DNA of 64,000 nucleotides, taken from positions 248,001-312,000 of the forward strand of contig NZ_JABFNK010000005.1 of the NCBI RefSeq assembly GCF_020386975.1. The letters run 5' to 3'. The stretch comes from Thermococcus bergensis (GTDB lineage Archaea > Methanobacteriota_B > Thermococci > Thermococcales > Thermococcaceae). The notes beneath the pieces were generated by a model that was not told the DNA's origin, searched no databases, and was given only the letters and a program-made list of their open reading frames with translations. The translations under genes and the position numbers were made by a program. This document shows positions 32,750 to 45,393 of the stretch, piece by piece. The stretch's first letter is position 1; every line of letters starts with the position of its first letter.

Positions 32750-33202
32750 ATGAAGTGCCCCTTCTGCAGTCCATCCGAAGAGGTTCTGCTCTATGAAGAC
32801 GAACACATTAGGATTCTCATAGACTCTTTTCCTGCAAACAGGGGACATCTTCTCGTGGTACCAAAGAGACACGTTGAAGATTGGAAGGAGCTCAAAGAGG
32901 AAGAAAAATTTGCCATAATGAGGGGAATAGAGCTGGCAATTGAAAAGCTGGGTGAAGTCCTAAAGCCAGAGGGATTCAACGTTGGGATAAACCTTGGGGA
33001 AGCAGCAGGTCAAACGGTGGCTCATCTTCATGTTCATGTGATACCAAGGTACAGAGGGGACACTAATTTCCCGCGAGGAGGTGTAAGAAAGGCGGTTTTA
33101 AACATTGAAGATGAGAACTTAAGCTTAAAAGAGAAATGGGCTGGAAACAGGCTCACTCAAAAAGAAAAAGAGACATTAAAAAGGCTATTCGCTCACATCT
33201 AA
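32750..33202 (+). CDS. HIT-family nucleotide hydrolase
   Basis: A 150-residue histidine-triad protein: HLHVHVIPRY is the active-site triad and CPFC near the N-terminus is the usual zinc site half. Family members hydrolyse AMP-linked substrates such as dinucleoside polyphosphates. ATG 32750 follows GAGGTGGAAAC. Its 3' end overlaps the convergent MazG-YbaK gene by 18 bp. Confidence 0.9.
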   Translation: MKCPFCSPSEEVLLYEDEHIRILIDSFPANRGHLLVVPKRHVEDWKELKEEEKFAIMRGIELAIEKLGEVLKPEGFNVGINLGEAAGQTVAHLHVHVIPRYRGDTNFPRGGVRKAVLNIEDENLSLKEKWAGNRLTQKEKETLKRLFAHI

Positions 33203-33937
33203 GACCTCAGCCTTCTGGAATTCCACGATTTTCTTTGGACTTAGCCTGCTCAACCTGTCTATCCTTCCTCCTCCGCCGATTACAAACTCCTTTTCCACGA
33301 GTTTCTTGTCAACCACTGTTTTTATAGGGATGCCCACAGGGGGGACTTCACCAACTTTGTAGCCGGTTATCTCTTCCACTTCCTTTGGTTTCGCCATTCT
33401 GACGTTTCCAAAAATGTTTCTTAGCTTCTCCAGGCTCACCTTTGATTTTCCGTCGACTATGACCAAAATGGGCTCGCTTTCATTTACAATAAAAACGAGA
33501 GACTTGATGATGTTTTCGGGACTAACTCCCAGGAGCTTGACAACCTGCTCCACAGTTTTTACTTCTCCTTTTGGTTCTATAATCTCTCCTCCCAGCTCTT
33601 TAACAATCTCTTCCACTCTTATTACATTTGCAGGATATCTCTCCTCATTCTTTTTCAATTTTCTCTCCACGGCTTCGTCAAGGTCGATGTTAAGCTCATG
33701 GGCTAAAAGGGTAAGGTATATTATCACATCAGCCATTTCATCGGCAATTTTTTCCTTTTTCGTGGGGTCTTTAATGCTCTGAAGTATTTCCTCGTTGGTT
33801 TCCCATTGGAAGTGCTCTAGAAGCTCTCCCACCTCAACAGCCAGAGAAATTGCGAGATTTTTTGGAGTATGGTACTTTTTCCAAAGCCTTTCATCCCTAA
33901 ATTTGACAGCCTTCTCTTCGATTTCTTTAAAATTCAT
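33185..33937 (-). CDS. Fusion of MazG-like nucleotide pyrophosphohydrolase and YbaK/ProX deacylase domain
   Basis: A single 250-residue frame with two domains. Residues 1-102 are a MazG/RS21-C6-like all-helical pyrophosphohydrolase, with the acidic motifs EVGELLEHFQWE and EMADVIIYLTLLAHELNID. Residues about 104-250 match a YbaK/ProX aminoacyl-tRNA deacylase fold (VEEIVKELGGE, KSLVFIVN, GYKVGEVPPVG, VIGGGGRIDRL). The junction is KNEERYPANVIRVEE, with no linker. Each half is usually a separate protein. ATG 33937 lies inside the end of the upstream gene (11-bp overlap). Confidence 0.85.
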   Translation of the reverse strand: MNFKEIEEKAVKFRDERLWKKYHTPKNLAISLAVEVGELLEHFQWETNEEILQSIKDPTKKEKIADEMADVIIYLTLLAHELNIDLDEAVERKLKKNEERYPANVIRVEEIVKELGGEIIEPKGEVKTVEQVVKLLGVSPENIIKSLVFIVNESEPILVIVDGKSKVSLEKLRNIFGNVRMAKPKEVEEITGYKVGEVPPVGIPIKTVVDKKLVEKEFVIGGGGRIDRLSRLSPKKIVEFQKAEVLDVSE

Positions 33938-34214
33938 GAGCCTTCATCTCCTTTAGGAGTGTTAGATATCTCAATAGCTCTTCCAGTTCTTCCTTTGAAA
34001 ACTTTTTCTCAGCATATTCCTCAGGGTCAAAAGATGACAGGTAACCCTTTATTTTGTTTAACCTATCTAGTTCGTCCTCCAGCTCAAGAGACCTTTTTGT
34101 AAACTCCCAGGAAGTATGAGGGCTTTCAAAAATCCGCTGCTTGTTGCTGACTATGGCTATCTTTACATTTGCTATCGCTTCGTCAACTAGTTCCAACAGC
34201 TCCTTTATCTTCAT
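33927..34214 (-). CDS. Small helical hypothetical protein, 95 aa
   Basis: A highly charged, helical, coiled-coil-like protein (SWEFTKRSLELEDELDRLNK, FSKEELEELLRYL). No family recognised. It overlaps the MazG-YbaK gene by 11 bp and is likely co-transcribed with it. It is divergent from the small membrane protein gene at 34286. Confidence 0.7.
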   Translation of the reverse strand: MKIKELLELVDEAIANVKIAIVSNKQRIFESPHTSWEFTKRSLELEDELDRLNKIKGYLSSFDPEEYAEKKFSKEELEELLRYLTLLKEMKAHEF

Positions 34215-42974: not shown

Positions 42975-44126
42975 ATGGTTCGTGTTGTAATACTAGGCCA
43001 AGGATACGTAGGGAGCATTTTTGCTCTTGGAGTTGAAAGGATAAAAACAGGAGAGCTTGGCTACTATGGAATTCCACTTCAGAACGAGCTCCCAATAAAA
43101 GTCGAAGACATAGAAATCGTTGGAAGCTATGATGTTGACAAAAACAAAATTGGCAAGTCTCTATATGAGGTTGTGAAGAACTACTGGGACGACAAAATCC
43201 CAGAAGCCCTTAAGAACATAATCGTAAGAAAGGGAATCCATCTCAGAAGCTTAAGAAACCTCCCCATAGAGGCTGAGGGCCTTGAGGATGAAATGAGCCT
43301 TAAGGAAGCTGTTGAAAAACTTGCTGAAGAATGGAAAAAGCTTGATGTTGATGTAATTGTCAACGTTTGTACTACAGAAGCCTTTGTTCCGTTCGGAAAC
43401 AAGGAAGAACTTATAAAAGCCATTGAAAACGACGAGAGAGAAAGATTAACCGCAACCCAGGTTTACGCTTATGCTGCCGCTCTGTACGCAAAGGAAAGAG
43501 GAGGGGCGGCTTTCGTAAACGCTATTCCCACACTCATAGCAAACGACCCCGCTTTTGTGGAGCTTGCCAAAGAGAGTAACTTAGTTATTTTTGGTGATGA
43601 TGGAGCCACAGGAGCAACACCGCTAACAGCTGATATCTTAGCTCACTTAGCTCAGAGAAATAGATACGTTAGAGACATAGCCCAATTCAACATCGGTGGT
43701 AACACTGATTTTCTGGCTCTGACAGACAAGGAGAGAAATAAAAGCAAAGAATTCACAAAATCAAGTGTAGTTAAAGACCTCCTCGGTTATGAGGCCCCCC
43801 ATTACATCAAACCAACCGGGTTCCTCGAGCCATTAGGAGACAAAAAGTTCATTGCCATGCACATCGAATACGTTAGCTTCAACGGAGCAATTGATGAGCT
43901 TGTGATAACCGGAAGAATCAACGATAGTCCAGCCTTGGCAGGGTTGCTCGTTGATTTAGTAAGATTGGGCAAAATGGCAGTAGAAAGGAAGGAATTTGGA
44001 ACCGTCTATGAAGTTAACGCCTTCTACATGAAAAACCCGGGACCAAGAGAAAAAGGCAACATTCCAAGGATAATAGCCCACGAAAAGATGAGAATGTGGG
44101 CAGGGCTAAAGCCAAAGTGGCTCTAG
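42975..44126 (+). CDS. Myo-inositol-1-phosphate synthase
   Basis: A 383-residue NAD-dependent enzyme that makes inositol-1-phosphate from glucose-6-phosphate. This is the first step to di-myo-inositol phosphate, the heat-stress solute of Thermococcales, and to archaeal inositol lipids. Motifs are LGQGYVGSIFALGVER, GDDGATGATPLTADIL, FNIGGNTDFLALTD and SKEFTKSSVVKD. ATG follows GAGGTGAGAGC. It overlaps the convergent AlaX gene by 4 bp. Confidence 0.93.
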   Translation: MVRVVILGQGYVGSIFALGVERIKTGELGYYGIPLQNELPIKVEDIEIVGSYDVDKNKIGKSLYEVVKNYWDDKIPEALKNIIVRKGIHLRSLRNLPIEAEGLEDEMSLKEAVEKLAEEWKKLDVDVIVNVCTTEAFVPFGNKEELIKAIENDERERLTATQVYAYAAALYAKERGGAAFVNAIPTLIANDPAFVELAKESNLVIFGDDGATGATPLTADILAHLAQRNRYVRDIAQFNIGGNTDFLALTDKERNKSKEFTKSSVVKDLLGYEAPHYIKPTGFLEPLGDKKFIAMHIEYVSFNGAIDELVITGRINDSPALAGLLVDLVRLGKMAVERKEFGTVYEVNAFYMKNPGPREKGNIPRIIAHEKMRMWAGLKPKWL

Positions 44127-45349
44127 CTCTTCAGCTTTTCTTTTAGTATCCTCCTTGCAACTTCAAGAACTTCCTCGGGGGTTTTCTTAAAGCCCCCTCC
44201 CTTTGCTAGAATCTCACTTCCACCGCCACCGCCGCCGACTTCTTTGAGAACTTCTCTGAGGAGTTCATTCATGCGGATACCTTTCGTGTTTTTGTTCTTT
44301 GCAAAGATCACGTAATTTTTTCCAACTGCCAAAACTACTGTGTTAGGGTTCTTATCTACAAGATACACAATAAATGCCTGTGCGTCTTTCATGTCCATTG
44401 ACTCAATGTAGGAGACTACTTTTATTCCGTCACTCTCATCGGCATTGGAAAGCAGTGCCTTGCCTTTCCATTCCCAAAGCTCTCTCCTCAGTTCAACTTT
44501 TTCTTTTTCGATGTTTTTGAGCTCTTGTTTTAGTTCTTCAACTCTTTCAATCAGGGGCCTATTCTTGTTGGGCATCTTATCTAGGCTTTCCCAGTAATCT
44601 TCCAAGAGCTTGTTTAAGTATATGAGAGCCCTATATCCACAGGCAAACTCTATGCGCCAGATGTTCTTGGTTTTTCTGTAGAAATTGAGGACTTTTATGA
44701 AGCCAACTTCTCCGGTATTTTTTACGTGAGTTCCTCCACAGGGAATTAGATCAACGTCTCCTATTTTCACCACTCGGATTTTTCCTGATATATCCTTAGG
44801 TAGGGATTTTCTAAGAGCGGAACTTACCTCTTCGGGAAGCTCCTCATATTCTTCAACCTCTACGGGAATGTTGGTCCAAACGACTTCATTGGCTTCAAGC
44901 TCTGCAGCGAGAATGTGTTCCCAAGTTAATTCCTCATCAAAATTGATCTCAATCTTGTTGTATTCCGGGAATATCTGAAATCCAGTGGTATCGCTGTTGT
45001 ACATCCTTTTCAAGATTGCAGAAAGTATGTGCTGGCCAGTGTGTTGCCTCATGTTTTCGTATCTCCATTCCCAGTCAAGCTCAAGCTCAACTTCCTCCCC
45101 TTCCTTTGGAATCCTCCCTTTGAGCTTTCCTTCATGCCAGATTTCATCTTTTCCCTCAACTTTTTCAACTTCAATTCTAAAGCTATCCCCCTTTATTACC
45201 CCTCTGTCGCTGGGCTGTCCGCCGCCTTCAGGATAAAATATTGTCTTATCAAGCAATACCCTAATTCTATTCCCTCTAACTTCAACATCCTCAACCTTTG
45301 CAGAAGCCTCTCTTAGGTAGGGGTCGATATAGAACAACTTGAACGTCAT
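44123..45349 (-). CDS. Alanyl-tRNA editing protein AlaX-L
   Basis: A 408-residue trans-editing protein that removes misattached Ser or Gly from tRNA-Ala. Zinc motifs are HTGQHIL and CGGTHVKNT, with an N-terminal AlaRS editing-like barrel (FYPEGGGQPSDRG). A coiled coil follows, then a C-terminal DHHA1 domain ending KEVGGGGGGSEILAKGGG. ATG 45349 follows GGTGAGACAT. Confidence 0.92.
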   Translation of the reverse strand: MTFKLFYIDPYLREASAKVEDVEVRGNRIRVLLDKTIFYPEGGGQPSDRGVIKGDSFRIEVEKVEGKDEIWHEGKLKGRIPKEGEEVELELDWEWRYENMRQHTGQHILSAILKRMYNSDTTGFQIFPEYNKIEINFDEELTWEHILAAELEANEVVWTNIPVEVEEYEELPEEVSSALRKSLPKDISGKIRVVKIGDVDLIPCGGTHVKNTGEVGFIKVLNFYRKTKNIWRIEFACGYRALIYLNKLLEDYWESLDKMPNKNRPLIERVEELKQELKNIEKEKVELRRELWEWKGKALLSNADESDGIKVVSYIESMDMKDAQAFIVYLVDKNPNTVVLAVGKNYVIFAKNKNTKGIRMNELLREVLKEVGGGGGGSEILAKGGGFKKTPEEVLEVARRILKEKLKS

Positions 45350-45393
45350 ATGTCTCACCAGAAGAGAATCTCAATAAAAAGATAAAAAGCTAA

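What the first reader, a model, noticed from the sequence alone, without database searches (positions are those of the whole stretch)
33185..33937. One-polypeptide fusion of MazG-like and YbaK-like domains
An NTP pyrophosphohydrolase-like domain runs directly into an aminoacyl-tRNA deacylase-like domain, with no linker and no frameshift. This joins nucleotide-pool cleaning to tRNA quality control, a combination I do not know from standard annotations. It sits next to a HIT hydrolase gene.
Basis: partly seen in the sequence, partly recalled or inferred. Interest (0 to 1): 0.5.

Follow-up and report, generated by a model that had tools for sequence, protein, structure and literature searches.

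The report
Nucleotide-cleaning and tRNA-editing fusion protein
In some heat-loving Thermococcus archaea, a gene for an enzyme that destroys unwanted nucleotides runs straight into a gene for an enzyme that removes wrongly attached amino acids from tRNA, giving one small protein; the fusion is real and conserved, but both halves are ordinary and related species keep them apart.

Summary
ORF 33185-33937 (-) encodes 250 aa. Residues 1-103 are a MazG-like all-alpha NTP pyrophosphatase domain (DCTPP1/AF1178 type). Residues ~106-250 are a complete INS/YbaK-type aminoacyl-tRNA deacylase domain, closest to APE2540 and ProXp-x. The junction has no linker, stop, frameshift or conserved internal start. 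The same ORF is intact in 18 of 94 Thermococcaceae genomes (plus one cut by a contig end), with motif residues kept and dN/dS 0.06-0.14. It is the only tRNA_edit domain found in the window's genome. I found the architecture nowhere else in the archaeal, phage and plasmid collections scanned. Other Thermococcaceae do not have two adjacent genes: in 22 g3 loci MazG alone sits beside P95, and a separate deacylase lineage, when present, lies elsewhere. The locus tree favours one old fusion, later trimmed to MazG in most of genus g3. Most likely it is a two-headed quality-control protein whose domains act independently, MazG probably multimerising the deacylase. My literature searches found no description. 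It is a new arrangement of two known families: modest interest.

The parts
33185..33937 (-). Fusion gene, 250 aa, ATG start, stop codon included
   Evidence: the ORF listing; full-length in 18 of 94 Thermococcaceae genomes plus one contig-truncated copy; no internal stops in the 18
33629..33937 (-). MazG-like / DCTPP1-like all-alpha NTP pyrophosphatase domain, residues 1-103; ExxE E35/E38, ExxD E67/D70, plus H23, W45
   Evidence: Pfam PF12643 E 2e-18; phmmer 4qgp E 4.6e-23; Foldseek 4qgp TMt 0.83-0.86, mouse dCTPase 6sqw TMt 0.83-0.84; residues invariant in 19 fused copies
33188..33622 (-). INS/YbaK-type aminoacyl-tRNA deacylase domain, residues 106-250; conserved lysine K145 and GXXXP loop G196-P200
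   Evidence: Pfam PF04073 E 9.5e-28; phmmer 1wdv E 6.8e-22, 2cx5 E 1.8e-16; Foldseek 1wdv TMt 0.89 rmsd 1.6, 2cx5 TMt 0.84; K145 in 19 of 19 and G196, P200 in 18 of 18 fused copies covering them
33623..33628 (-). Junction, residues 104-105 (no linker; helix 86-100 is followed by helix 103-114)
   Evidence: Alignment with stand-alone genes; AF2 secondary structure; no start codon conserved in residues 95-122 of 18 copies
33944..33951 (-). Shine-Dalgarno-like GGAGATGA before the fusion start, inside the end of the upstream gene
   Evidence: GGAGATGA at the same spacing in 16 of 18 full-length fused loci; L004 has AGAGATGA and L045 AGAGGTGA (counted from the printed sequences)
33927..34214 (-). 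P95: conserved 95-aa protein just upstream, overlapping the fusion start by 11 nt; next to MazG in relatives with or without the deacylase
   Evidence: P95 found on 42 of the 49 MazG loci used; AF2 mean pLDDT 88.9; no Pfam family over cut-off. Against a fixed partnership: G015 has P95 without MazG beside it
32750..33202 (+). HIT-family hydrolase, convergent, 18-nt 3' overlap with the fusion
   Evidence: Pfam PF01230 E 7.8e-26; found near MazG in 33 of 43 P95-bearing loci (some loci are too short to show it)

Best explanation
One bifunctional quality-control protein whose two heads work independently. The N-terminal domain hydrolyses unwanted (d)NTPs to NMP and pyrophosphate, as DCTPP1-type all-alpha pyrophosphatases do. 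The C-terminal domain clears mischarged tRNA in trans, most likely of a small amino acid such as Ala or alpha-aminobutyrate, as its nearest characterised relative ProXp-x does. The deacylase was joined in frame to the end of a MazG gene between P95 and the convergent HIT gene, probably once in the ancestor of the g1, g6 and g3 lineages, and was later deleted from most g3 genomes. The practical gain is probably shared expression from the P95-MazG message and multimerisation of the deacylase on an oligomeric MazG core. Shown by sequence: the single ORF, both folds (predicted), motif residues, purifying selection, synteny. Inferred: both activities, the substrates, oligomerisation, the direction of gain and loss.
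For: Both domains are complete and predicted with high confidence (mean pLDDT 93.7) with clear matches to solved enzymes. E35, E38, E67, D70, H23 and W45 are invariant in 19 fused copies, K145 in 19 of 19, G196 and P200 in 18 of 18. dN/dS medians are 0.061, 0.070 and 0.136 (MazG half) and 0.083, 0.075 and 0.088 (deacylase half) in g1, g6 and the single g3 pair. It is the only PF04073 match in the window's genome (96.1% complete), so no INS domain was found in ProRS or elsewhere. The same locus with MazG alone occurs in relatives. In the locus tree the fused g3 copies group with the solo g3 loci (96/88), not with g1/g6, and G109 carries a decayed fused copy beside a solo deacylase. Precedent: a plant-specific C-terminal domain dimerises ProXp-ala and tightens tRNA binding (PMC9425024, passages); the N-terminal domain of MCP3 is needed for dimerisation (PMC11286415, passages).
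Against: No activity, oligomer state or substrate was tested. pTM is 0.69, so the relative placement of the domains is unsure. [quoted passage not shown] AU tests do not reject that the fused loci form one clade (p 0.060, and 0.109 with the decayed locus; p 0.295 on MazG alone), and five solo g3 MazG rows fall outside the g3 group in the MazG tree, so one old fusion with later loss is favoured, not proven.
Confidence: 0.6

Rival explanations
1. The MazG half no longer matters as an enzyme and serves only as an oligomerisation or tRNA-binding platform for the deacylase.
For: Appended domains dimerise plant ProXp-ala (and tighten its tRNA binding) and MCP3 (PMC9425024, PMC11286415, passages). 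AF2 gives a compact all-helical N-terminal domain.
Against: The metal-site residues expected for the family are invariant in 19 fused copies, as in the solo MazG relatives, and dN/dS of the MazG half is about as low as that of the deacylase half.
Confidence: 0.15
2. The two activities are truly coupled: nucleotide binding or hydrolysis by MazG gates the deacylase, or the two share a stress or metabolite cue.
For: Joining with no linker and retention under purifying selection in two genera.
Against: MazG persists next to P95 without the deacylase in 22 g3 loci. Stand-alone deacylases lie in other neighbourhoods (G015 lies nearer). In G109 the fused copy is decayed while a solo deacylase frame is open. 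Only 42 of 94 Thermococcaceae have any tRNA_edit match.
Confidence: 0.12
3. A neutral accident: a chance in-frame join gave a viable fusion that persisted in some lineages and is being lost, with no gain in function.
For: Patchy retention, clean absence of the deacylase at this locus in most g3, decay in G109, and an additional solo deacylase in G031.
Against: Kept in all 17 g1/g6 genomes that gave any match (20 examined; the 3 without a match are 75-79% complete) with low dN/dS.
Confidence: 0.13

Closest known systems
DCTPP1 / RS21-C6 and archaeal AF1178 (4QGP), MazG-like all-alpha NTP pyrophosphatases
   Same: N-terminal half: sequence (phmmer E 1.4e-18 for 2a3q, 4.6e-23 for 4qgp), fold, metal-site motif and the H/W residues
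   Different: The solved chains matched hold this domain alone; here the C-terminus runs directly into a deacylase domain
ProXp-x (T. thermophilus 2CX5/2Z0K) and APE2540 (1WDV), INS-superfamily deacylases
   Same: C-terminal half: 38% identity and TMt 0.89 to 1WDV, 30% and TMt 0.84 to 2CX5; conserved lysine and GXXXP loop
   Different: Single-domain proteins; the fused lineage is apart from the solo Thermococcaceae deacylases (fused side 84/49, solo clade 99/94)
Plant ProXp-ala (C-terminal domain) and T. brucei MCP3 (N-terminal domain)
   Same: INS deacylase with an appended domain that gives dimerisation, in plants also tighter tRNA binding (PMC9425024, PMC11286415, passages)
   Different: The appended domains are not described as pyrophosphatases in the passages I saw; here the added domain keeps a full catalytic motif
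MazG-NUDIX fusions in another family of the same class (L118, L119)
   Same: N-terminal MazG-like domain joined to a second hydrolase
   Different: Partner is a NUDIX hydrolase, not a tRNA deacylase; the MazG half is distant and under the Pfam cut-off

Membership tests
MazG-like / all-alpha NTP pyrophosphatase (DCTPP1 type) | Score above the curated Pfam cut-off | tested here: met
   PF12643 66.8 bits against 27
MazG-like / all-alpha NTP pyrophosphatase (DCTPP1 type) | Metal-binding ExxE ... ExxD acidic residues (motif recalled, not taken from a call) | tested here: met
   E35, E38, E67, D70 in 19 of 19 fused copies
MazG-like / all-alpha NTP pyrophosphatase (DCTPP1 type) | All-helical fold of dCTPase | tested here: met
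   AF2 helices H3-16 to H86-100; Foldseek 4qgp_B TMt 0.86
MazG-like / all-alpha NTP pyrophosphatase (DCTPP1 type) | Hydrolysis of dCTP or other NTP to NMP and PPi; dimer or tetramer | not testable with these tools
   Needs purified protein
INS superfamily aminoacyl-tRNA deacylase (YbaK/ProXp) | Score above the curated Pfam tRNA_edit cut-off | tested here: met
   PF04073 97.2 bits against 25.5
INS superfamily aminoacyl-tRNA deacylase (YbaK/ProXp) | Strictly conserved lysine and GXXXP loop (PMC11286415, passages) | tested here: met
   K145 in 19 of 19; G196 and P200 in 18 of 18 copies that reach them
INS superfamily aminoacyl-tRNA deacylase (YbaK/ProXp) | Deacylation of a mischarged tRNA | not testable with these tools
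   Needs an assay
YbaK proper (Cys-tRNA(Pro) deacylase, TIGR00011) | Score above the curated equivalog cut-off | tested here: not met
   62.9 bits against 153.25; an INS relative, not shown to be a YbaK orthologue
ProXp-x | Best match among characterised INS families | tested here: inconclusive
   2cx5, labelled ProXp-x in PMC11295145 (figure legend passage), scores better than YbaK and ProRS chains, but APE2540, not assigned to a family in what I read, is nearer by sequence; no cluster analysis done

The most novel reading that the evidence does not exclude
The fusion is a coupled sensor-editor: a multimeric MazG core that binds or destroys a nucleotide accumulating under stress controls tRNA deacylation on the same molecule, so that nucleotide-pool damage and translational fidelity are adjusted together. 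A Foldseek hit of the whole model to a giant-virus tryptophanyl-tRNA ligase, aligned over 244 columns (rmsd 14, 13% identity, unresolved), leaves open that this domain pair arose more than once beside tRNA charging.
Probability: 0.08. Interest if true: 0.6.

Novelty: new variant of a known kind. Interest (0 to 1): 0.3.

Why it matters
It gives a natural, presumably heat-stable two-enzyme protein and, in related genomes, the same locus without the deacylase. This is a ready set of comparisons for asking whether domain fusion implies functional coupling or only shared expression and multimerisation. For the annotator, it is the only tRNA_edit-type deacylase found in this genome and would be missed if the gene were named only MazG.

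Tried and rejected
Two adjacent genes in relatives: rejected; in the genomes listed with both domains separate, the genes are far apart or on different contigs (G033 about 255 kb). G015 is a partial exception to the different-neighbourhood picture: it has the HIT-P95 locus without MazG, and a solo deacylase about 3 kb from P95.

Sequencing error or frameshift: rejected by 18 intact copies. Internal start giving a separate deacylase: no ATG or TTG in residues 95-122 of any of 18 copies; GTG in 5 of 18 (at residue 108 in 4 of them, plus scattered others), so not conserved.

Independent fusions elsewhere: among listed matches, 0 spanned both domains in 23, 151 and 398 genomes of three other archaeal phyla. 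Limits: one protein query; one search is a sample of its phylum, scored at most 6 candidates per genome, and did not list its weakest matches. I fetched 18 regions, chosen for long frames or odd matches (15, 1, 2 from the window's own class), and found MazG and deacylase never in one frame. G649 matched residues 60-243, but its frame held only the deacylase. Plasmids: 67 of 72,556 records match, 0 cover 80%. Phages: 21 of 50,697 match, 0 cover 80%.

The giant-virus lead was not resolved: three viral-contig scans found nothing confirmed. P95: the AF2 model is a set of helices with no PDB fold match better than E 0.7.

Full report
What is there. The ORF at 33185-33937 on the - strand encodes 250 aa. 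Pfam places a MazG-like domain at residues 30-104 and a tRNA_edit domain at 125-239, both far above their cut-offs. NCBIfam gives no model above its cut-off for this protein; TIGR00011 (YbaK) scores 62.9 against 153.25. By sequence the nearest solved structures are AF1178 (4qgp, residues 6-106) and mouse/human dCTPase for the first half, and APE2540 (1wdv, 118-250) and 2cx5 for the second. AlphaFold2 on an alignment of 73 window and locus proteins gives mean pLDDT 93.7 and pTM 0.69: each domain is confident, their mutual placement is not. Foldseek agrees: 1wdv TMt 0.89 and 2cx5 0.84; 4qgp 0.83-0.86 and mouse dCTPase 0.82-0.86. Among the 50 of 246 PDB matches shown, the longest alignment is 162 columns, so none of them covers both halves.

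The junction. Helix 86-100 of the MazG part is followed at 103-114 by the first helix of the deacylase part. Stand-alone MazG proteins of the syntenic type end a few residues past the KYP motif, and stand-alone deacylases begin at about the residue aligned with 106, so the fusion is an end-to-end join with about two to three residues between. No start codon is conserved between residues 95 and 122: 5 of 18 copies have a GTG there (4 at residue 108), none an ATG or TTG. GGAGATGA precedes the ATG at the same spacing in 16 of 18 fused loci, with one-base to two-base variants in L004 and L045, inside the end of P95 (my count from the sequences printed); this suggests translational coupling to P95.

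Distribution. Of 94 Thermococcaceae genomes, 72 have some match, 18 have the full fused ORF and one more has it cut by a contig end: genus g1 10 + 1 of 13, g6 6 of 7, g3 2 of 61. The g1 and g6 genomes without any match (G003, G005, G034) are only 75-79% complete. One further g3 genome, G109 (85% complete, 4% contaminated), has a decayed fused copy with several stops. 42 of the 94 have any tRNA_edit match (counted), some of them broken or partial; the family itself is widespread (12 of 14 control genomes). The window's own genome has exactly one tRNA_edit match, in this gene, and one further weak MazG-like match elsewhere. The window's genus includes a MAG labelled Thermococcus sp. AUK126. I did not find the fusion among listed matches in 23, 151 and 398 genomes of three other archaeal phyla, with long frames checked by HMM, nor in plasmids or phages. 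The limits of those scans are in Tried and rejected. Bacterial chromosomes were not surveyed adequately.

History. The locus is syntenic: iorA - M94 - P95 - MazG[-deacylase] - HIT (convergent), with local rearrangements. In g3 genomes such as G033, G081, G089 and G019 the MazG gene at this locus stops right after the MazG domain and HIT follows at once. Solo deacylases of 14 g3 genomes and G020 share neighbouring ORF families with each other, and those of other genera lie in other surroundings (some neighbours named). G015 differs: no MazG between HIT and P95, and a solo deacylase about 3 kb from P95. In the deacylase tree the 18 fused copies fall on one side (support 84/49, not strong) and 22 Thermococcaceae solo genes form a clade (99/94). 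In the MazG tree 20 of 25 g3 solo rows are sister to the two fused g3 copies (22 rows together 99/96) within the fused set; the other five g3 solo rows fall with g2, g4 and g5 rows. In a concatenated P95+MazG+HIT tree of 43 loci, rooted on the single g5 locus, g1 and g6 group (89/84), and the two fused g3 loci plus the decayed G109 locus are sister to 22 solo g3 loci (25 rows together 96/88). The simplest reading is one old fusion, with the deacylase later deleted from most of g3 and decaying in G109. AU tests do not exclude the fused loci as one clade (p 0.060, and 0.109 with the decayed locus; 0.295 on MazG alone), so this is favoured, not shown.

Function. E35, E38, E67, D70, H23 and W45 are invariant in 19 fused copies and in the solo MazG rows compared; K145 is invariant in 19 and G196 and P200 in the 18 fused copies that reach them. 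PMC11286415 (passages) states that INS members use a conserved lysine and GXXXP loop; the ExxE/ExxD motif of MazG proteins is recalled. dN/dS medians: g1 0.061 (MazG, 22 of 45 pairs usable) and 0.083 (deacylase, 39 of 45); g6 0.070 and 0.075 (15 of 15 each); the single g3 pair 0.136 and 0.088. So both halves are probably working enzymes. The deacylase substrate is inferred: 2cx5 is labelled ProXp-x in PMC11295145 (passages), a family that clears alpha-aminobutyrate and, less well, Ala from tRNA. The pyrophosphatase substrate is inferred from DCTPP1 (dCTP and C5-modified dCTP; PMC7162842, passages). [quoted passage not shown]

Against strong coupling. MazG survives without the deacylase, deacylases survive alone in other neighbourhoods, G031 carries both fused and solo deacylase, and G109 keeps only the solo one open. 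I therefore read the fusion as independent heads with shared expression and probable multimerisation.

Novelty. In the held open-access library I searched MazG+YbaK+fusion (2 papers, off topic by their listing), MazG/aminoacyl-tRNA/deacylase/domain fusion, three of four terms (4, off topic by their listing), Thermococcus+YbaK+MazG (0), ProXp/trans-editing/archaea/fusion/Thermococcus, three of five terms (517, 20 listed), ProXp-x or APE2540 (5), DCTPP1/MazG terms (10, 9 listed) and INS-superfamily terms (23, 12 listed). None of the listings or passages seen describes this fusion. Domain-architecture databases and most subscription papers were not available, so sequence databases may well already hold the gene under a generic name.

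Noticed in passing
window 33927-34214 (-): P95, a conserved 95-aa helical protein without a Pfam family over cut-off, lies next to MazG on 42 of 49 MazG loci used, with or without the deacylase; a possible functional partner of MazG, though G015 has P95 without MazG beside it.
   Followed up: partly
L118:557-1327 (-), L119:563-1414 (-): MazG-like domain fused to a NUDIX hydrolase in another family of the same class: a different double clean-up fusion.
   Followed up: partly
L115:929-2137 (+): MazG-like domain at residues 21-123 of a 403-aa stop-to-stop frame in an archaeon of another phylum; the C-terminal part has no Pfam match.
   Followed up: no
BFVD A0A3G5A643 (not in the window): Best viral fold match of the whole model is a Hyperionvirus tryptophanyl-tRNA ligase aligned over 244 columns (E 3.2e-8, 13% identity, rmsd 14); it may hold an INS-like domain with helical neighbours.
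   Followed up: partly
L123 (G015:C10:17000-33000): The syntenic locus lacks MazG between HIT and P95, yet a solo deacylase lies about 3 kb from P95 beside the DUF4152 gene.
   Followed up: partly
L056 (G109:C405): Decayed fused copy with several stops, in a genome (85% complete, 4% contaminated) that has an open solo deacylase frame.
   Followed up: partly
G067:C1:213690-214117, G068:C1:1975989-1976243: Solo deacylase genes that appear broken or truncated in nearly complete genomes, so this editing function may be dispensable in some lineages.
   Followed up: no
window 44126-45370 (-): Open frame similar (35% over 247 aa) to a gene with tRNA_SAD and alanyl-tRNA synthetase domains that neighbours the solo deacylase in G031; possibly AlaX-like.
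   Followed up: no
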